A stretch of 44,742 bases of DNA from a virus. The translations under genes and the position numbers were made by a program. The notes under the pieces are model-generated. The model made no database searches and was not told where the DNA came from. It saw only the letters and a list, made by a program, of their open reading frames with translations. The stretch is taken from positions 1 to 44,742 of the IMG/VR virus record IMGVR_UViG_3300044712_002304; one strand, 5' to 3'. Shown here in pieces: positions 6,825-43,852 of this stretch (positions within the stretch are counted from its first letter, which is position 1; every line of letters starts with the position of its first letter).

Positions 6825-7289
6825 ATGTCACTAGAAATTACAAAAGAAAAAGCAAGGAAGCTATATCCAACGGCTCCGGATTGGTTAAAAGAAGAACTAG
6901 TAAGCGCATTTGGCGAAGAATATTTTAAACCAAAAACCTTTGAAAACTTCAAAACATTTGAAGATGCATGTAAGCAACTGGGATTAAACCCGGATGAAGT
7001 AATAACTGGAAATGATACTTCGGACGAAGTTGCTTATAAGAAACTAAAAATTATTGCGATTGCCATTAATGAAGGTTGGATTCCTGATTGGAATAATGAC
7101 AATCAAAAAAAATGGTGGCCATGGTTTAATTTGTCTTCCGGGTTCGGTTTTTCGCATTCGTATTACGACTGTACGCGCACGTTTGCGACTGTCGGTTCCC
7201 GCCTTTGTTTTGAAACACAGGAAAAATCAGACTATGCAGCACAACAATTTATTGAAATTTACAAGGAATTTTTAACCATAACAAAGTAA
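6825..7289 (+). CDS. DGR target protein 1
   Basis: 154 residues. The C-terminal half contains PDWNNDNQKKWWPWFNLSSG followed by the variable segment (about residues 103-128: SSGFGFSHSYYDCTRTFATV then GSRLCF) and a helical tail of about 25 residues. The GW.PDWN...PWF...GSRLC framework is typical of small Bacteroidota DGR targets, probably a C-type-lectin-like ligand-binding fold. The N-terminal ~60 residues are helical (KTFEDACKQLGLNPDEV). No signal peptide, membrane segment or tail-fibre domain is visible, so how it reaches a ligand is unclear. It is a paralogue of the next gene, four bases away. Confidence 0.85.
   Translation: MSLEITKEKARKLYPTAPDWLKEELVSAFGEEYFKPKTFENFKTFEDACKQLGLNPDEVITGNDTSDEVAYKKLKIIAIAINEGWIPDWNNDNQKKWWPWFNLSSGFGFSHSYYDCTRTFATVGSRLCFETQEKSDYAAQQFIEIYKEFLTITK
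7130..7207 (+). repeat. DGR variable repeat 1 (VR1)
   Basis: Aligned without gaps to the template repeat from 7132 to 7207 (76 positions, against TR 7741-7816). VR1 differs at 16 positions and all 16 are adenine in the template; all 53 non-adenine positions are identical. Codons diversified include AAT to CAT, AAT to TAT, AAC to GAC, TAT to TGT, AAC to CGC and AAT to TTT. Confidence 0.97.
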
Positions 7290-7292
7290 GCC

Positions 7293-7703
7293 ATGACAAC
7301 AAAAACAAAAAAAACAGCTCCCGTAAAATTTGATTACAAAACAATCAAAACATTTAAAGATGCCTGCGAAAAATGTGGGTTGGATCCTGCAAACTTACCG
7401 GATGTTTCGCTTATTCCCGATGATTTAAGAAAAGTAATAGTAGCAAACTATAAACTTACAATCATTTACAGGGCAATAAATAACGGTTGGAAACCAGATT
7501 GGAACAATTACGATCAATATAAGTACTACCCTTGGTTTGGGGTTTTGTCTTCCGGGTTCGGTTTTTCGGGTTCGGATTACAACTTTACGTGCACGACTAC
7601 GACTGTCGGTTCCCGCCTTTGCACTGATACCTCAGGAAAGGCATTATACATAGCAAAACAGTTTGAAGCTGAATACAAGGATTATCTCCTTTATTCGGAA
7701 TAA
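7293..7703 (+). CDS. DGR target protein 2
   Basis: 136 residues, a paralogue of the preceding protein. Shared blocks are TFKDACEKCGLDPANLP, YKLTIIYRAINNGWKPDWNN, YYPWF, the variable segment (about residues 85-111, SSGFGFSGSDYNFTCTTTTV then GSRLC) and a C-terminal helix (YIAKQFEAEYKDYL). A Lys/Thr-rich N-terminus replaces the longer one of target 1. The gene sits directly upstream of the template repeat (TR begins about 35 bases after its stop). No export signal is visible. Two targets served by one template and one reverse transcriptase is a known but less common DGR arrangement. Confidence 0.85.
   Translation: MTTKTKKTAPVKFDYKTIKTFKDACEKCGLDPANLPDVSLIPDDLRKVIVANYKLTIIYRAINNGWKPDWNNYDQYKYYPWFGVLSSGFGFSGSDYNFTCTTTTVGSRLCTDTSGKALYIAKQFEAEYKDYLLYSE
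7543..7621 (+). repeat. DGR variable repeat 2 (VR2)
   Basis: Aligned to TR 7741-7816 from 7546 to 7621. VR2 differs at 14 of 76 positions, every one an adenine in the template. Eight of the substituted adenines carry the same new base in VR1 and VR2 (including template offsets 9, 15, 63, 70, 74 and 75). These outer ones probably mark fixed framework or initiation-of-mutagenic-homology differences, whereas the inner ones differ between VR1 and VR2 and mark hypermutated codons. Confidence 0.97.
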
Positions 7704-7737
7704 GAATATTACGGTTGTATGTTGCAGAACTGCCAGT

Positions 7738-7817
7738 TTTGTCTTCCAGGTTCAGTTTTTCGAATTCGAATTACAACTATACGAACACGAATACGAATGT
7801 CAGTTCCCACCTAAGCT
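7738..7817 (+). repeat. DGR template repeat (TR)
   Basis: Non-coding donor for both variable repeats, 35 bases after target gene 2 and about 100 bases before the reverse-transcriptase start. It has 23 adenines in 76 positions, clustered in AAT/AAC codon positions when read in the target frame (N-rich: FSNSNYNYTNTNTNV). AAY codons allow very many amino acids but no stop codon under adenine mutagenesis. Similarity to the targets ends at 7816-7817. The open frame through it (7663-7857) is incidental. Confidence 0.96.
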
Positions 7818-7922
7818 AAAACTGCAATGTAAACCCTGCCAACACGGCAAAAAATAAACATAAATGAGGGAGCGTTGGTAGTTTCCATCCGGAAGCGAAA
7901 GCGATTCTTAAAAAGCAAAGGC
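7818..7922 (+). ncRNA. DGR spacer region of the template RNA, with hairpins
   Basis: Between TR and the reverse-transcriptase start. TGCC (7838-7841) and GGCA (7847-7850) form a small hairpin, followed by an A-run. A second short stem, AGCG-AAAG-CG around 7893-7902, closes with a GAAA-type loop. In the Bordetella DGR the RNA just downstream of TR is needed for cDNA priming; by analogy this stretch would be part of the functional template RNA. The structure itself is inferred by eye. Confidence 0.45.
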
Positions 7923-8891
7923 ATGAAAAGAATAGGTAATCTATACGAACAAATTTGCAGCGTTGAAAATCTTCAACTGGCCGATACAATTGCCAGAAAA
8001 GGAAAATTAAAACAACCAGGAGTAATTAATCACGATAAAAATAGGGATAACAATCTACTTGTATTACACGAAATGCTTAAGAATAAAACATATCGCACAT
8101 CAGCATATACAACTTTCACGATCTTTGAACCCAAAGAACGTGAAATTTTCAGGTTGCCATATTATCCCGATCGAATAGTACATCATGCCGTAATGAATGT
8201 ATTGGAACCTTTATTCGTATCAACATTTACAGCTGACACATACAGTTGCATTAAAAAACGAGGCATCCATGCAGCCGCTAACGCAGTAAAAATTTCGTTA
8301 AAGGAGTTACCTGGCACACAATATTGTCTAAAGCTGGATATAAAGAAGTTTTATCCGAATGTAAACCACGATGTTTTAAAAGCTTTGTTGCGAAAAAAGA
8401 TTAAGGATAACGATCTTCTATGGTTACTCGATGAAATTGTTGATAGTGCCGATGGCCTTCCAATTGGCAACTATCTTAGCCAGTACTTTGCAAATTTCTA
8501 TCTCACATATTTCGATCACTGGATTAAGGAAAATTTGAAAGTAAAATATTACTTCAGATATGCAGATGACATCGTAGTGTTATCCGATAATAAACCCTAT
8601 TTACACCAGCTGCTATTCGATATTAAAAACTACCTGCAGGAAAATTTAAAGCTTACTGTAAAGCATAACTACCAAATTTTCCCTGTTGACGAGCGGGGAA
8701 TTGATTTTGTTGGCTATGTTTTCAGACATACCCATACATTACTTCGAAAAAGTATTAAAAAGAGCTTTGCCAGGATGCTTTATAAAAATAAGAATTTACA
8801 ATCTATTGCTTCATACAAAGGATGGGCGATACATTGTGATAGTATAAACCTTTTAAAGAAATTGTTAAATGAACAGCTTCAGCCAATTTAA
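7923..8891 (+). CDS. DGR reverse transcriptase
   Basis: 322 residues starting at ATG 7923 (MKRIGNLYEQICSVENLQLA, the usual beginning of DGR reverse transcriptases). A TTG-started extension to 7875 is possible but unlikely. Motifs are LKLDIKKFYPNVNHD (first catalytic Asp), IGNYLSQ at residues 181-187, YADD at 213-216 in YFRYADDIVVLSD, and FVGYVF. The [IL]GxxxSQ form, in place of the retroviral and group-II QGxxxSP, is the DGR hallmark. It copies the TR transcript with errors at adenines and feeds the product to both target genes. Confidence 0.95.
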   Translation: MKRIGNLYEQICSVENLQLADTIARKGKLKQPGVINHDKNRDNNLLVLHEMLKNKTYRTSAYTTFTIFEPKEREIFRLPYYPDRIVHHAVMNVLEPLFVSTFTADTYSCIKKRGIHAAANAVKISLKELPGTQYCLKLDIKKFYPNVNHDVLKALLRKKIKDNDLLWLLDEIVDSADGLPIGNYLSQYFANFYLTYFDHWIKENLKVKYYFRYADDIVVLSDNKPYLHQLLFDIKNYLQENLKLTVKHNYQIFPVDERGIDFVGYVFRHTHTLLRKSIKKSFARMLYKNKNLQSIASYKGWAIHCDSINLLKKLLNEQLQPI

Positions 8892-9174
8892 TATAAAACA
8901 AACGCAAAAGGCTTTTGAAGGAGACAAAATAAAAATTTCGAAAGTACTTGATAAGGAAATAGTAATACATAATTATAAAATAGAAGATTCTAAAGTATTT
9001 AAAGATAGAGGTACGGGTAAATGTTTGCATCTTCAAATTTCCATTAACGACTCAAAACATATTGTTTTCACGTCCGCAGGAGGTTTGATAGAAACTATTC
9101 AGCAGGTACCTGAAAATAGTTTCCCTTTTAGTACAATAATAATTGAGGAAAATGAGAGGTTTAAGTTCACTTAG
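8869..9174 (+). CDS. OB-fold-like small protein, possible DGR accessory
   Basis: 101 residues, starting inside the last 23 bases of the reverse-transcriptase gene and so probably translated with it. The segment from about residue 22 (KISKVLDKEIVIHNYKIEDS then KVFKDRGTGKCLHLQISIND) is a run of beta strands ending in PFSTIIIEENERFKFT, resembling single-strand-binding or OB-fold domains. It is not the helical-bundle Avd accessory protein known from Bordetella phage. A role in holding template RNA or cDNA for the DGR is inferred from position only; a general replication ssDNA-binding protein is the main alternative. Confidence 0.55.
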   Translation: MNSFSQFNIKQTQKAFEGDKIKISKVLDKEIVIHNYKIEDSKVFKDRGTGKCLHLQISINDSKHIVFTSAGGLIETIQQVPENSFPFSTIIIEENERFKFT

Positions 9175-16440: not shown

Positions 16441-17087
16441 ATTGGAACGATGGTATAGCTGATGAATTATCATTTTGGAATGATTGGTACGAAACAAAAG
16501 GTTGTACATGGCCCGACGATTATAAGTTCAGGATTAACCCTGATACTGAAATACAATCGCGAATATCCGAACACCTGGTAAATGGTAACGAAAAAATAAT
16601 GGACGTTGGCGCCGGACCGTTAACCATTTTAGGTAAAAACTGGAAGGGTAAAAAGTTAAATATACGGGCGTGCGATGCTTTGGCGGTTTCGTATGCTAAA
16701 ATAAACGAACGCCATGCAATTAACCCAATAATTGTAACTGAGGAATGCAAAGCGGAGGAACTTGTAGTAAAATACGGGTATTGCTCCTTTAATATAATAC
16801 ATGCACAAAATTGTATCGATCATTGTATCGATCCGGTTAAGGCTATTATACAAATGGTTTCACTGGCGGATATTAAGGGTATTATTTTGCTACGGCACGA
16901 AGTAAACGAAGGTAAAAATGAAGGTTATAAGGGTTTACACCAGTGGGATTTTTACGAAAAAAACGGCGATTTTATGATATCTGGTAAAGGGATGGATTGT
17001 AATATAACCAGATTATTAAAATACGATGCGTTAGTTAAAACAAAGGTTCAGAGTGGATATATTGAAAATACAATTTTAGTAAGATGA
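16437..17087 (+). CDS. SAM-dependent methyltransferase
   Basis: 216 residues. IMDVGAGPLTILG (about residues 53-65) is a class I SAM-binding motif, NIRACDALAVSYAKINER is the ribose-binding strand, and NIIHAQNCIDHC is motif IV. The family is that of small-molecule or sugar methyltransferases. It overlaps the genes on both sides by ATGA, so the three are translationally coupled. Terminal methylation of a glycan made by the flanking transferases is the obvious idea, inferred from context. Confidence 0.7.
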   Translation: MNWNDGIADELSFWNDWYETKGCTWPDDYKFRINPDTEIQSRISEHLVNGNEKIMDVGAGPLTILGKNWKGKKLNIRACDALAVSYAKINERHAINPIIVTEECKAEELVVKYGYCSFNIIHAQNCIDHCIDPVKAIIQMVSLADIKGIILLRHEVNEGKNEGYKGLHQWDFYEKNGDFMISGKGMDCNITRLLKYDALVKTKVQSGYIENTILVR

Positions 17088-19159
17088 AAATTGCGAAACT
17101 TATTCTGCATTATAATACTCCAAAACTAACGGCGGATTTATGCCGTATGGTACCCGATGCCATAATTATTGATAATGGTAGCGATAAGCAGCCTTTAGCA
17201 ACCGGCAATATGGTTATTAGCCTGGCAAAAAATTACGGTTTTACAATCGGTTGGAACTTAGCAATTAAAATGTTATGGAACGATTACGATGCCTTTTGGT
17301 TAATGAATTCAGATATTACAATTACTCCGGAATCGGTTAATCGGGTATGCAAGTTAATAGAAAACGAGGATATTGATATACTTACCCCGGTTTATAATTG
17401 TTGGATGAAACATTGCCAACAGCAAATTACTAAAGGATTACGATCTACCAATATAATTGAATTTACGGCGCCGGTTATTAAAAAATCGGTATTCGAAAAA
17501 ATTGGATTATTCGACGAACGTTTCGCGATGGGTTATGGGGTTGAGTTTGATTTCTGTTATAGAGCACGACAAAAGGATTTAAAAATATGGGTAGACGATG
17601 GAAGCTCGTTTCATCATATCGGCCACCAAACAATTAAAGCAAACGATGGTATTATAGCCTACTCGAAAAAAGCAAATTTTGAACTCACACACGGGCTACT
17701 TAATAAATATGGTTGGGATTGGATGGGTATTGTATTAAAGGATGTGGATATTAAAACCGATTTTGACATGAATATTGCCGTTTATACCACTTTATTCGGC
17801 GATTACGATACGCATAAGCAATGGCCAGAACAAAATATAAAAGCCAAATATTATATAATTACCGATAATCCAAACTTAAAGGTACCCGGATGGGAAACTA
17901 TTGTGCCAAATTTTCCACGGCACGATTTAAACGCACGTTTACGAGCTAAATATTTTAAGATGTTTCCATGGGAAATACCCCAATTAGACGCTGCCAGTAT
18001 TACTGTTTATATCGATGCATCCATACAGGTTGAATCGGAGCATTTTATAGATTATTGCATTCGTAATTTAACTGCCGATATGTTACTGTATAAACATCCA
18101 CAGCGCACGTGTATTTACGACGAAGCAAAAGCCTCTATGGATTTGCTTAAATACAAAACAGAGCCAATAAAACAGCAAATTGAATCGTATAAACCGTTTT
18201 TTCCATCAAAACAGGGGTTATATGCTTGTGGAGTAATGATTCGAAAACATACTGATATTGTTAAAAAAGTAATGTTCGATTGGTGGTGGGAAAATATTAA
18301 ATATTCGTACCAGGATCAATTATCGTTTCCGGTTGTATGTAAACTAAATGACTTTAAACCGGCTACATTTGCCGAAAACCAGTACAAAAACGAGTATTTT
18401 AAGGTGAAATGGCACGACGATACGATTAAACTGAATCCGGAAATTACTGTTTTAATGCCTATTTATAACACACCAGTTGAATACATTAAAATCGCCATTG
18501 ATTCCATATTAAAACAAACATTTACAACCTTCGAATTGCTTATTGTGGATGATAACAACAGCGATCAATCAATAATTACCTGTATTAACGATTTTGAATT
18601 ATCGGATAAACGAATCAGGGTAATATCTACAAATGAAAATAAAGGTATAGCAGCTGCTTTAAATTATGGAATAGAAAATGCGGCATGTAACCTTATTGTA
18701 AGAATGGATGCTGACGATATTGCTGAGCCAACCCTTTTACAAAAGCATTTCAATTGGTTTGCTGCCAATCCCGATAAAAATATATGTGGTGTGCAAATTG
18801 AGCTATTTTCGCCCGAAAAAGTATGGCAAAGTCATCACGAAAGTATAATTACCAAACAAAAGGCCATTAATAATAAAGGTTTTTGGGTAGTTAATCATCC
18901 TGGTATTGGTTATAGGACAGAATTTATTAAAAAATTTGGATCCTATGGAAATTCTAAACAAGGGCAGGCAGAGGATTATGCGTTATGGTGCAAAATACTT
19001 GCTTCAGGTGAAATAATTTATAATATGCCGGATGTGTTAATCCATTACAGGGTTATTACCAATAAAAAATATAACCAGGACCGTAAATCGCCTGAGTGGT
19101 TTGAATTTTTGGAACAATGTAAACAACAATTATATGAACGATATAACAGCATGGCTTAA
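17084..19159 (+). CDS. Three-domain glycosyltransferase (GT2 + DUF616-like + GT2)
   Basis: 691 residues, three catalytic-type domains. Residues 1-220 are a GT2/rhamnosyltransferase-like domain (AKLILHYNTPKLTADLCRMV, AIIIDNGSD, FWLMNSDITI). Residues about 228-430 resemble DUF616/TOD1-type glycosyltransferases (NIAVYTTLFGDYDTHKQWPE, DASIQVESEHF, QLSFPV). Residues about 450-691 are a canonical GT2 (PEITVLMPIYNTPVEYIKIA, LLIVDDNNSD, RMDADDIAEP). One protein could thus add several sugars in turn. It is coupled to the methyltransferase and precedes the terminase genes. Confidence 0.75.
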   Translation: MKIAKLILHYNTPKLTADLCRMVPDAIIIDNGSDKQPLATGNMVISLAKNYGFTIGWNLAIKMLWNDYDAFWLMNSDITITPESVNRVCKLIENEDIDILTPVYNCWMKHCQQQITKGLRSTNIIEFTAPVIKKSVFEKIGLFDERFAMGYGVEFDFCYRARQKDLKIWVDDGSSFHHIGHQTIKANDGIIAYSKKANFELTHGLLNKYGWDWMGIVLKDVDIKTDFDMNIAVYTTLFGDYDTHKQWPEQNIKAKYYIITDNPNLKVPGWETIVPNFPRHDLNARLRAKYFKMFPWEIPQLDAASITVYIDASIQVESEHFIDYCIRNLTADMLLYKHPQRTCIYDEAKASMDLLKYKTEPIKQQIESYKPFFPSKQGLYACGVMIRKHTDIVKKVMFDWWWENIKYSYQDQLSFPVVCKLNDFKPATFAENQYKNEYFKVKWHDDTIKLNPEITVLMPIYNTPVEYIKIAIDSILKQTFTTFELLIVDDNNSDQSIITCINDFELSDKRIRVISTNENKGIAAALNYGIENAACNLIVRMDADDIAEPTLLQKHFNWFAANPDKNICGVQIELFSPEKVWQSHHESIITKQKAINNKGFWVVNHPGIGYRTEFIKKFGSYGNSKQGQAEDYALWCKILASGEIIYNMPDVLIHYRVITNKKYNQDRKSPEWFEFLEQCKQQLYERYNSMA

Positions 19160-37862: not shown

Positions 37863-40382
37863 ATGCCTAATACCGCTTTTCTATCCACACCCGGACTCGT
37901 TTCTTTAGCAGGAAATCCAGTGAACTTTAAATTGGCTGGAAGAAATGCGTTTACTGGCAATGGTTATGCTGCTACAGCACAAATTATCCTATACAAATAT
38001 GCAGCCTTTTCGAACGATCAAACAAAAACCATAACCTGGGGGAACGGATCGTTAACCCTTACAGCTAAAACAACACCCACAGCCTACAACCATATTGCTA
38101 CTACTGCCGTAGATGAAGATATTCTCGCGGCACTTTTACAGGATCCCAATTTCGTCAACGATTTCACCGCCGAAATAGATGAGGGAGCTCTTTTAATTAC
38201 TGCCCGAAAATCAGGATTTGCTTACAATATAGAAGTAACAGGTAATCTATCTATTAATGATTATATACAAGTTTCCGGAGGTGATAATACTCCTGTTTCG
38301 TTTTATAAATTAGTAGCTAAATTAGAGGTGGATGGTCAGGTATTGCCAGAACTTACCCTACCTGTTGAAGGGGGTGCTTCCGAAACTTACCCAGCCGGAT
38401 GGAATAATTACAAAGCAGGTGTAGCCGATATTGATGTGGCCGATATGCTAAGCGAAGAAAACCGCGGACATTTCACCCTCATTTTCGAAACAAATGTTCG
38501 GCACCAGGTTCATAACATTCTAAAAGCATTCAGGATGTATGCCTACGAACAAAATGGCATACCTCCGGTTACAGGGGGCGGATCCTATTCCGATACTTTT
38601 TACGCACTCCAGGGCAAACTGGAAAACTTTCGCCAGGGAGAATTAAATTATTTAGAAAAGAATGTTACCGATTTACTTACAGAAACACGCATGTTTCTAT
38701 CATTTGCTCCGGTAACGAAACAAACCGATATTTATGCTCCGGAACGATTATCCTGGTTATTTCAAAATGCAGGAACTTACAGGCTATGGGCTACAGAATA
38801 TTATTCAAACGGCACAGTTTTCACTGCCGCCCGGGACGAAGTTGTAATTACGGGTTTAGGTGTATGCGAATTCGACACATCCTATAAAAGCATTCGCACC
38901 AATTTCGATCGCGATTTGGTATCGTACAAAGTGTGGATCGCAAATTCATCCGGCGAAGCAATTTCTGAGGAGCGCACTTACGTTATTGATTATAATTTTT
39001 TTAATAATGCCAGGTACTTCTTTTTTAAAAATTCTTTAGGTGTATACGAGTGTATGCGCACCACTGGCGTTGCTGTAAAAAGTTTAAATGTTAAAAAGGA
39101 TTTCATTAATATTCCGTACGATAAACGGTTCACCAATTTGGATACGCAGGAAAAACAATTGTCTGCTACCTCCGAATTGGCTTACGAAATAAACAGCGGG
39201 TATTTTACCGATAAATACTGGGCCGATTATTTCCAACAATTTCTATTATCCTCAGATGTGTATTGGCTTAAAAAAGGAACTGCTTACCCTGCCAGCATCC
39301 GCGATAGTAAAAATAAAGTTTCGGAAGATGGCGAATATACCCAATACGCAACCTTTAATCTGGTGCATTCAATCCACGACGATTTTACCGAAGAATTTAT
39401 CGCAACGGCGCCAATTTCAATCGGTGATTTCAGTTTCGACTTCAGCACAGATTACTTTATCGGATCCGGAATTTTGTTTTTATCCGATTTACAAGTTGGA
39501 TATTTCACAAAACAAGGTTGTGGTAGTGGTTTTAGCGGTACAGACGAAAGTTATATTATTGCTGCCGGGACTTATTCGAGCTATATTTCGCAGCAAGATG
39601 CAAACGATAAAGCGCTGGCCGATATAGCTGCAAACGGGCAAAATTATGCCGATTTACACGGATCGTGCATATTTACAGGTAATGTAACCGAATTTCTTGC
39701 AAGTATTGAAAGCTTTACAAACCCAACTGTATACGGTGCGCATGACGGTACTATTAATATAATAGTTTCCGGAGGTTTGTCACCATATACATTTGCGTGG
39801 AACGATGCTGTAACAACCCAAAACCGAACAGGATTAGCAGATGGTAATTATAGCGTTACAGTTCGCGACTCACTCGGTCAGGAAATTATACTTAGTCAGG
39901 AACTACAGGAACCAGTTCAATTATACTGGAACACCGTACAAACATGGCGTGCTCGTAAAAATAATTGCGGATCTGGTTATTACGGATCAATCGAAACCAT
40001 GACAGCTTTGGCAAATACATTTTCGTCTACTATATCAGTTGATAATGCAAATGCATTAGCGTTAGCATACCTACAAGCTAATGCACAAGCTTACGCAAAT
40101 TCTGTGGGTACATGTGAACTATATGCTGAAGGTACACTGGATATTATTAAAGATGCAGGTGCAGTATTCCAATTGGATATTACCTATAGCGATCAAACAA
40201 CGCAAATGATTAATCAAAATACTCCCAATCCGGTAGATATTAAACAAATGGCAGCAACGTTATTACTCACCGGCAGTAATATCGATCATGGCTATTTTCA
40301 ACCGGATACCAACGATCGTGTAAATAAAAATACCAATCGGTTATATACATTCACCACCATTCAACATTTAGTAATTGTATAA
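37863..40382 (+). CDS. Large tail protein with SprB repeat and two DUF5977-like domains
   Basis: 839 residues. The first ~540 residues are a beta-rich baseplate or tip body. Near residue 550 GYFTKQGCGSGFSGTDE opens a DUF5977-like domain (…A..YSSYISQQDANDKALADI); at about 614-685 lies one SprB repeat (TNPTVYGAHDGTINIIVSGG, SPYTFAWND, GLADGNYSVTVRD); near 698 a second DUF5977-like domain begins (RARKNNCGSGYYGSIETM). SprB repeats come from gliding-motility adhesins of Bacteroidota. Stop overlaps the next ATG (ATAATGG). Confidence 0.75.
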   Translation: MPNTAFLSTPGLVSLAGNPVNFKLAGRNAFTGNGYAATAQIILYKYAAFSNDQTKTITWGNGSLTLTAKTTPTAYNHIATTAVDEDILAALLQDPNFVNDFTAEIDEGALLITARKSGFAYNIEVTGNLSINDYIQVSGGDNTPVSFYKLVAKLEVDGQVLPELTLPVEGGASETYPAGWNNYKAGVADIDVADMLSEENRGHFTLIFETNVRHQVHNILKAFRMYAYEQNGIPPVTGGGSYSDTFYALQGKLENFRQGELNYLEKNVTDLLTETRMFLSFAPVTKQTDIYAPERLSWLFQNAGTYRLWATEYYSNGTVFTAARDEVVITGLGVCEFDTSYKSIRTNFDRDLVSYKVWIANSSGEAISEERTYVIDYNFFNNARYFFFKNSLGVYECMRTTGVAVKSLNVKKDFINIPYDKRFTNLDTQEKQLSATSELAYEINSGYFTDKYWADYFQQFLLSSDVYWLKKGTAYPASIRDSKNKVSEDGEYTQYATFNLVHSIHDDFTEEFIATAPISIGDFSFDFSTDYFIGSGILFLSDLQVGYFTKQGCGSGFSGTDESYIIAAGTYSSYISQQDANDKALADIAANGQNYADLHGSCIFTGNVTEFLASIESFTNPTVYGAHDGTINIIVSGGLSPYTFAWNDAVTTQNRTGLADGNYSVTVRDSLGQEIILSQELQEPVQLYWNTVQTWRARKNNCGSGYYGSIETMTALANTFSSTISVDNANALALAYLQANAQAYANSVGTCELYAEGTLDIIKDAGAVFQLDITYSDQTTQMINQNTPNPVDIKQMAATLLLTGSNIDHGYFQPDTNDRVNKNTNRLYTFTTIQHLVIV

Positions 40383-42643: not shown

Positions 42644-43852
42644 TTAAATAATACCTCGCAGAATATCTGGTTTAAAATTCAATACTTTCTCCGATTTCTC
42701 CCCAAAATGCCTGCGAATGTAGCTATATGTACTTTCCATAGATGTGTGGCCAAGGTGTGACATTAACTCCGATAATGTTGCTCCACTCTCCAATAATTTA
42801 CCCGCTCCGGTATGTTTAAATGAGTAAAATTTGTACAATTTTGGCATTTTTAACTCTTCCCTGTATTGAACAAACCTCCTTTGAAAGAAGTTTTTACCCA
42901 GGGCAATTAAGCCTGGTTTACCACCCCTGGAAAATATGTAATAATCTTTCGGGTAATTAACTATTTTAAAATTAGTTAGCAATTCTACCAGAGCTGCAGG
43001 AATAGTAATTTTTCGGGCCCCCGTTTTACCGCTTTCCTGAGTAATATGAACCATATTATTATATAAATCAATATCCTGAACCTTTAACAAACGTAATTCA
43101 TTACCCGGACGACAACATAAAAAGAATTGCATTAAACAAGCAATAAAAAACTGTTCATCCCTTGACGAAACATGATTTAAAAATGTGCGCATATCCACAT
43201 CCATTATCGGACGGGCTGCCATATCCTTAGTTTTTGGAGGTCTGACAATTCCCTCCAGGGGAATGCAGTCTGTTAATTTTTTATTCTTAAAATAACGGAA
43301 CATTTGCCCCAAATTCTGCTTGTATTTGTCAATAGTCCGCGGATCCAGTTTGCGATTATCAATAAGATTTGCAAAGAATTTTTTAACTACCTCATTATTA
43401 ATCTCGAAAATACGGTATTTTTCAAACCCATTATTTTCAAGCCATTCTCTAAATAAACGAGTTTTGGACTGGTACGATTCATATGTTTTTGGAGATACAC
43501 GTCTTTTTGTTTCTAGGAGAAATCCTGAAAGGTGTTTACGAATGTGCGAATTATTATGTTTTTCGTTACCTAACCGAGCGGTTACGTTTCGATATTGCGT
43601 TTCGTCAGCATAGATATACTGACTCGGATCCCAAGGTCGCCATCCTGCAGTAAGCTTTTTTGAATAAATGGATATTAATCTATTAGCATACTTTCTGCGC
43701 TCATTAATATCTTCAATATTTTTGAGCCCTTTATAAATACGGAACTTCTCAAGCCTATCCGTTTTCGGATAATAGCATAAATACTCAATATGCCACTTTT
43801 TCCCTTCAACCAGGTGTGGCATTACAACTTCAACATCTTTAGACTTTTTCAT
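42644..43852 (-). CDS. int: Tyrosine-recombinase integrase
   Basis: 402 residues. N-terminal arm-binding and SAM-like regions, then the catalytic domain: Arg in FFLCCRPGNELRLLKVQDID, Lys in SGKTGARKITIP, the box usually written H-x-L-R-H here YSFKHTGAGKLL, and GHTSMESTYSYIRRHFG with the Tyr nucleophile. The Tyr/Lys replacement of the first His/Arg is common in Bacteroidota phage integrases. It lies next to the candidate attP and is transcribed leftward with the repressor side. Convergent with, and abutting, the last tail gene. Confidence 0.9.
   Translation of the reverse strand: MKKSKDVEVVMPHLVEGKKWHIEYLCYYPKTDRLEKFRIYKGLKNIEDINERRKYANRLISIYSKKLTAGWRPWDPSQYIYADETQYRNVTARLGNEKHNNSHIRKHLSGFLLETKRRVSPKTYESYQSKTRLFREWLENNGFEKYRIFEINNEVVKKFFANLIDNRKLDPRTIDKYKQNLGQMFRYFKNKKLTDCIPLEGIVRPPKTKDMAARPIMDVDMRTFLNHVSSRDEQFFIACLMQFFLCCRPGNELRLLKVQDIDLYNNMVHITQESGKTGARKITIPAALVELLTNFKIVNYPKDYYIFSRGGKPGLIALGKNFFQRRFVQYREELKMPKLYKFYSFKHTGAGKLLESGATLSELMSHLGHTSMESTYSYIRRHFGEKSEKVLNFKPDILRGII

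What the first reader, a model, noticed from the sequence alone, without database searches (positions are those of the whole stretch)
6825..9174. Complete diversity-generating retroelement with two target genes and one template
TR (7741-7816) aligns without gaps to VR1 (7132-7207) and VR2 (7546-7621). Of 76 positions, 16 differ in VR1 and 14 in VR2, and every one is an adenine in TR; all 53 non-adenine positions are the same in all three. The RT has the DGR-type IGNYLSQ and YADD. The adenine-only pattern is diagnostic. Two VRs with different inner substitutions mean both have been retargeted from one template.
Basis: seen in the sequence. Interest (0 to 1): 0.85.

Follow-up and report, generated by a model that had tools for sequence, protein, structure and literature searches.

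The report
Phage gene-diversifying retroelement, two targets
A virus of Bacteroidota-type bacteria carries a self-editing cassette that copies one small template, with errors at the A letters only, into two of its own genes; comparison with relatives suggests how the copying machine may tell the gene it must rewrite from the template it must spare.

Summary
TR 7740-7815 (the finding's TR coordinates are one base too high) aligns without gaps to VR1 7132-7207 and VR2 7546-7621. All 16 and 14 mismatches fall on TR adenines, and 53 of 53 other positions are identical. It is a diversity-generating retroelement (DGR). The same cassette lies in most of 80 related viral contigs, usually with two VRs. 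In five near-identical contigs, 34 of 36 variable VR positions are TR adenines.

Beyond the finding:
(1) No Avd gene adjoins the RT. There is a structured spacer RNA (Rfam RT-17 region) with strong covariation, and a 101-aa OB-like protein after the RT in 79 of 80 loci, fused in frame to the RT in two lineages.
(2) The last 8 nt before the RT start codon (GCAAAGGC, 7915-7922) are complementary to the conserved VR 3' end (GCCTTTGC). The TR copy mismatches, mostly at conserved adenines. In BPP-1, Sp 48-56 matches VR 118-126 at 9 of 9 positions and TR at 6 of 9.

I propose that this RNA element is a target guide that explains IMH/IMH* directionality. That is inferred, not shown. The DGR itself is a known kind.

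The parts
6825..7289 (+). target gene T1 (154 aa), VR1 near its C-terminus
   Evidence: phrog_11581 E=3e-33; homologues in 77 of 80 loci, always upstream of the RT
7132..7207 (+). VR1
   Evidence: 16 of 76 differ from TR, all at TR-A
7201..7207 (+). VR1 IMH-like motif GCCTTTG (followed by T7208)
   Evidence: motif CGCCTTTG in 105 of 124 VRs, 0 of 62 TRs
7293..7703 (+). target gene T2 (136 aa), VR2 near its C-terminus
   Evidence: phrog_11581 E=6e-29; 64 of 67 T2 proteins fall in one well-supported group (99/99) with few T1
7546..7621 (+). VR2
   Evidence: 14 of 76 differ from TR, all at TR-A
7615..7622 (+). VR2 IMH-like motif GCCTTTGC
   Evidence: perfect complement of 7915-7922
7740..7815 (+). 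template repeat TR
   Evidence: single copy in the record
7809..7816 (+). TR counterpart of the motif, ACCTAAGC (IMH*-like), with sentinel adenines 7809, 7813, 7814
   Evidence: no TR among 62 distinct ones has the VR motif
7832..7919 (+). spacer RNA between TR and RT, Rfam RT-17 (RF03020)
   Evidence: 40.7 bits vs gathering 40.4; helices 7837-7840/7846-7849 and 7870-7875/7901-7906 covary in 58 relatives
7915..7922 (+). proposed guide/primer element GCAAAGGC of the template RNA
   Evidence: complementary to VR 3' ends: VR better than TR in 119 of 122, never worse; per-position counts
7923..8891 (+). DGR reverse transcriptase (322 aa, ATG 7923)
   Evidence: RVT_1, phrog_1423; start by comparison with relatives
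8869..9174 (+). 101-aa RT-linked small protein, predicted OB-like fold
   Evidence: present after the RT in 79 of 80 loci; fused in frame to RT in L193/L213 and L186/L190; model pLDDT 87; viral-library match to RT-domain proteins E=1.6e-7 and 1e-4

Best explanation
A phage DGR. Transcription across TR, the spacer and the RT gives a template RNA whose folded spacer binds the RT. The RT copies TR into cDNA with random errors at A. The cDNA replaces the matching stretch (VR) in T1 and T2, which diversifies roughly ten residues in each of two small paralogous proteins while TR itself stays intact. Shown here: the adenine-only relation of TR to both VRs; conservation of the cassette; population variation at TR-A positions in relatives, with transfer of two non-A template markers; a conserved, covarying spacer RNA; a conserved RT-linked small protein. 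Inferred from the BPP-1 model system: cDNA priming from the spacer and retrohoming. Inferred from my comparison only: that GCAAAGGC at the spacer's 3' end serves both as an imperfect pairing partner of the TR end and as a guide to the VR ends, and that the small protein handles the cDNA.
For: (mismatches only at A). (77 loci including the window with a TR upstream of the RT; 64 with two VRs, 8 with three, 5 with one). (near-identical contigs: 34 of 36 variable VR positions at TR-A, the other two are TR bases written into the VR; 0-4 changes in about 1,700-2,100 bases elsewhere). (interior TR-A positions read A 793, G 559, T 386, C 216 in VRs; sentinel A positions read G in 405 of 410). (non-A TR positions identical in nearly every VR). 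(spacer RNA). (small protein).
Against: No activity was measured. No Avd beside the RT and no hairpin after the VRs (best stem 4.0 vs 3.95 in shuffles, while BPP-1-like loci give 6.15 vs 3.70), so two features important in BPP-1 are missing or replaced. The C-type lectin fold of the targets was not demonstrated. The window is a metagenomic virus record, so host and expression are unknown.
Confidence: 0.94

Rival explanations
1. Inactive relic: a DGR that worked in the past but no longer diversifies, with VR1 and VR2 as frozen copies.
For: No polymorphism data exist for this exact phage; only this one record of it was examined.
Against: RT, TR, RNA, both VR frames and the small protein are all intact; the 53 non-A positions are still identical in three copies; relatives vary almost only at A positions.
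Confidence: 0.04
2. The GCAAAGGC-VR complementarity is incidental: GCAAAGGC serves RT translation initiation or pairs only with the TR in the template RNA, and the VR motif is fixed by the protein (Arg-Leu-Cys). This rivals the guide part only, not the DGR itself.
For: The element abuts the RT start codon; it also pairs at about 5.5 of 8 positions with TR; VR encodes a conserved G-S-R-L-C; in BPP-1-like loci the outer guide positions follow the TR rather than the VR.
Against: VR fits better than TR in 119 of 122 comparisons and never worse. CTA to CTT and CGA to CGC between TR and VR are synonymous yet nearly fixed (105 of 107; 6 of 6). The element changes together with a VR in L061 (GCAAGGC/GCCTTGC) and L052 (ACAAAGG/CCTTTGT), and partly in L076 (GAGGC/GCCTC). 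Different sequences but the same rule in Versailles-like and BPP-1-like DGRs.
Confidence: 0.35
3. TR, VR1 and VR2 are ordinary repeats homogenised by recombination, not by reverse transcription.
For: Three repeats lie within 700 bases and share synonymous bases within one phage.
Against: Differences confined to the A of one designated copy are not expected from gene conversion; the copy next to the RT is the template in all loci where a pair was found.
Confidence: 0.01

Closest known systems
Avd-less DGRs of the TG-VR-TR-RT layout, 'lineage 3 / CLec3', e.g. crAssphage LMMB (PMC7290462)
   Same: Order target-VR-TR-RT, no Avd in the cassette, related RT (crAss RTs up to 58% identical); the VR end codes for the S-R-L-C motif that the paper gives for lineage 3.
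   Different: Two (sometimes three) short paralogous targets of about 120-160 aa instead of one tail-collar fibre; a conserved OB-like ORF overlapping the RT end; located beside a DnaA-type and a methyltransferase gene rather than tail genes.
Bordetella phage BPP-1 DGR (NC_005357; PMC3240598, PMC12875486)
   Same: Adenine-specific TR to VR transfer; structured spacer RNA between TR and RT (Rfam Phage_DGR in BPP-1); IMH in VR differs from IMH* in TR; spacer element perfectly complementary to VR and imperfectly to TR.
   Different: BPP-1 has Avd, one large target (Mtd) and a hairpin after VR; none of these was found here.
Phage DGRs with two targets: tentaclins nd4/nd12 (PMC10743442), Bacuni phages (PMC8143477)
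   Same: One TR serves two target genes.
   Different: There the two targets differ in architecture (tentaclin plus another protein) or lie far apart; here they are adjacent paralogues conserved as a pair.
Bacteroides phage Versailles DGR (ON453897)
   Same: RT 44% identical; guide-like AACGGCACAA right before the RT matches VR TTGTGCCGTT; a distant T1 homologue (28%) elsewhere in its genome.
   Different: Its target next to the RT is a larger 'tail protein'.

Membership tests
Diversity-generating retroelement | Template and variable repeats that differ only at template adenines | tested here: met
   16 of 16 and 14 of 14 mismatches at A; same in relatives
Diversity-generating retroelement | RT of the DGR class adjoining TR | tested here: met
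   phrog_1423 E=2.5e-125, IGNYLSQ and YADD; TR end about 110 nt upstream of the ATG
Diversity-generating retroelement | VR near the C-terminus of a target gene | tested here: met
   codons 103-128 of 154 (VR1) and 85-110 of 136 (VR2)
Diversity-generating retroelement | IMH in VR distinct from IMH* in TR | tested here: met
   CGCCTTTG in 105 of 124 VRs, 0 of 62 TRs; its function as IMH was not tested
Diversity-generating retroelement | Mutagenic retrohoming activity | tested here: inconclusive
   sequence signs of activity in near-identical relatives; no experiment
BPP-1-type DGR | Avd accessory gene | tested here: inconclusive
   no gene fits between TR and RT, and the adjoining ORFs have no Avd match in Pfam or PHROGs; not all window ORFs were scanned
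BPP-1-type DGR | GC-rich hairpin/cruciform after VR | tested here: not met
   with BPP-1-like loci as positive control
Rfam RT-17 RNA | covariance-model match above gathering score | tested here: met
   40.7 vs 40.4 bits, marginal; of 11 relatives searched with a loose threshold 10 match at the spacer but below gathering, 25.7-39.4 bits; L039 reaches 44.1
C-type lectin fold target proteins | CLec fold of the VR domain | tested here: inconclusive
   model confident outside, poor inside the VR (pLDDT <50 at 105-110); no PDB fold match
OB-fold single-strand DNA-binding protein (8869-9174) | OB fold and ssDNA binding | tested here: inconclusive
   mainly beta model, pLDDT 87; viral-library hits include SSBs only at E 0.03-0.05; PDB hits not significant

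The most novel reading that the evidence does not exclude
DGR template RNAs carry a short guide. The spacer segment thought to prime cDNA synthesis pairs imperfectly with the TR end (IMH*) and perfectly or nearly so with the VR end (IMH), so guide plus cDNA form one continuous antisense strand on the target. The TR/VR mismatches that set the one-way flow of information include the positions where the guide matches VR and not TR. In BPP-1 the guide (Sp 48-56) ends exactly at A56, and its VR partner starts at 118, just after G117; from memory these are the published priming and first-templated nucleotides.
Probability: 0.55. Interest if true: 0.82.

Novelty: new variant of a known kind. Interest (0 to 1): 0.6.

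Why it matters
How a DGR finds its target and why its template is never overwritten is described as incompletely understood in the newest paper I could read (PMC12875486, 2026). A guide element in the template RNA would answer both with one rule. It can be tested by compensatory mutations in the BPP-1 system already rebuilt in E. coli. The RT-fused OB-like protein is a candidate stand-in for Avd, or a cDNA-binding partner, in Avd-less DGRs. The orphan Rfam family RT-17 gains a role as the spacer part of DGR template RNAs.

Tried and rejected
The finding's TR coordinates gave no match until shifted by one. I considered that the fixed TR-A/VR-G differences were RT sequence-context bias: judged unlikely, since inner template adenines vary widely while five flanking sites read G in 405 of 410. 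I considered A-to-I editing: rejected, because other flanking adenines are fixed to T or C. Hairpin after VR: not found. Target fold: no match. PDB and Pfam for the small protein: nothing significant. The plain RNAalifold consensus on the tool alignment found only one helix; a structure drawn by eye and by column scan from the same alignment was then counted, so its support is partly circular, though the shuffles and slides are far below it. A crAss RT scan failed because of in-frame stops in that locus under the standard code, so crAss DGRs were checked on single records only, with mixed results (no guide match in cr52 or Perkons; overlapping TR and VR matches in cr115). Papers on BPP-1 cDNA priming and on RT-17 RNA are not in the library, so earlier reports of spacer-VR pairing cannot be ruled out.

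Full report
WHAT IS THERE. Recomputing the alignment gives TR 7740-7815, VR1 7132-7207, VR2 7546-7621. TR has 23 adenines in 76 positions. VR1 differs at 16 and VR2 at 14, all at adenines, and the 53 other positions agree in all three. The finding's TR coordinates are one too high; in that register nothing aligns. The RT is a DGR-class reverse transcriptase by family match and by motif. Its start is very likely ATG 7923, since nearly all relatives have the matching ATG.

CONSERVATION. A scan of viral contigs gave 80 relatives with RTs 67-80% identical. With the window counted, 77 loci have a template just upstream of the RT: 64 with two VRs, 8 with three and 5 with one, some of these five on contigs that end near the cassette. 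Target homologues and the RT lie in a fixed order, and a 101-aa ORF overlapping the RT end is found in 79 of 80, whereas every other gene of the window recurs in at most 11 loci (flanks were limited, so this is a lower bound). So the unit is T1, T2, TR, spacer RNA, RT, small protein, carried by otherwise different phages. Of 67 T2 proteins 64 fall in one well-supported group (99/99, with four T1), so the duplication is old and the two copies have stayed distinct (few columns, rough support).

ACTIVITY SIGNS. Five contigs from different samples are nearly identical (98.7-99.9%) in this region. Pairs of them differ at 0-21 TR-A positions in their VRs, 0-3 other VR positions, 0 TR positions and 0-4 of about 1,700-2,100 positions elsewhere. 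Three separate VRs were rewritten, each in a different contig. Of 36 variable VR positions 34 are TR adenines; in the other two one contig holds the TR base. That is the signature of recent template-to-target transfer.

TWO CLASSES OF TEMPLATE ADENINE. Across 62 distinct TRs the inner adenines read A, G, T, C in VRs at 793, 559, 386 and 216 cases. Five flanking positions where the TR has A read G in 405 of 410 cases. At the VR 3' end the motif CGCCTTTG is present in 105 of 124 VRs and in none of 62 TRs. Some of these fixed changes are synonymous (CTA to CTT, CGA to CGC), so the constraint there is on the DNA or RNA and not on the protein. This is how IMH and IMH* differ in BPP-1, where a 21-bp element with five mismatches sets directionality (PMC3240598).

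THE PROPOSED GUIDE. The spacer RNA ends with GCAAAGGC immediately before the RT start codon, the reverse complement of the VR motif GCCTTTGC (42 of 61 loci have this exact octamer). Scoring complementarity of the last 35 spacer bases to each 3' end, VR beats TR in 119 of 122 comparisons, ties in 3 and never loses. By position, the two sentinel sites pair with VR in 88 of 114 and 111 of 115 cases, and with TR in 2 of 57 and 2 of 58. Where the spacer element differs, a VR sometimes differs with it: L061, L052, partly L076. The control for chance is the TR itself, which has the same length and nearly the same sequence.

GENERALITY. In BPP-1, Sp 48-56 (AGGTGGTCA) pairs at 9 of 9 with VR 118-126 and 6 of 9 with TR, and three of the five IMH/IMH* mismatches lie inside. 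From memory, the published priming nucleotide is Sp A56 and the first templated base is TR G117; the match ends exactly there. I could not check this, since the papers are not held. In 54 BPP-1-like loci position 122 pairs with VR in 53 and with TR in 6, while outer positions 125-126 fit TR as well or better. That suggests both pairings are used, TR for priming and VR for homing. With a separate measure, VR beats TR in 32 of 42 BPP-1-like and 48 of 63 Versailles-set comparisons. Grouped by similar VR ends, 94 clusters favour VR, 9 favour TR and 14 tie. The Versailles set contains some relatives of the window's own family, and clusters are not fully independent, so these counts are not probabilities.

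SPACER RNA. Rfam RT-17 matches 7832-7919 just above its cut-off and weakly at the same place in relatives and in crAss-type and Perkons DGRs. In an alignment of 58 spacers my proposed helices have 121 cells with changes on both sides against 28 in shuffles, and sliding the partner destroys this. In the TR-guide helix the sentinel pair fails in 55 of 58.

SMALL PROTEIN. The model has pLDDT 87, with a strand order like an OB fold. Sequence searches find only phrog_19665, of unknown function. It is fused in frame to the RT in two lineages (L193/L213, L186/L190; an internal start is not excluded), and the viral structure library gives RT-domain proteins as best matches. A role in cDNA handling is an inference.

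WHAT REMAINS OPEN. Why the 5' sentinel sites keep A in the TR although VRs nearly always have G is unexplained; in one relative the transferred tract reaches that far. The target's function is unknown. It sits beside a DnaA-type protein and a methyltransferase, not beside the tail genes, so receptor binding is a guess by analogy. The absence of the VR hairpin means target opening must work differently here, or without it.

VERDICT. The DGR as such is a known kind, in an Avd-less layout with a conserved pair of short targets and an RT-linked small protein. The transferable result is the guide-like complementarity, which I rate at 0.55 to be functional.

Noticed in passing
window 8869-9174; L193:1082-2356, L213:3983-5257, L186:355-1650, L190:3992-5287: The 101-aa ORF after the RT is conserved in 79 of 80 loci and is fused in frame to the RT in two lineages; candidate accessory protein of Avd-less DGRs.
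   Followed up: partly
window 7748, 7754 and the same sites in relatives: Conserved template adenines at two 5' sites where VRs almost always have G; not explained by the guide model.
   Followed up: partly
L016 about 4.3 kb and L031 about 5.6 kb upstream of the RT: Third VR in a distant target gene served by the same TR.
   Followed up: no
L040, L048, L057, L029 spacers: Rfam RT-14 also matches weakly over the same spacer as RT-17; the two families may both be DGR template RNAs.
   Followed up: no
window 42644-43852 (-): Integrase (phrog_1, E=3e-35): the phage is probably temperate.
   Followed up: no
window 17084-19159: 691-aa protein with glycosyltransferase and GtrB-like O-antigen conversion matches.
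   Followed up: no
window 37863-40382: Large protein with DUF5977 and SprB-type repeats, suggesting a Bacteroidota host.
   Followed up: no
L083 (crAss cr52_1) RT: RT reads with six in-frame stops under the standard code, perhaps because this phage recodes a stop codon.
   Followed up: no
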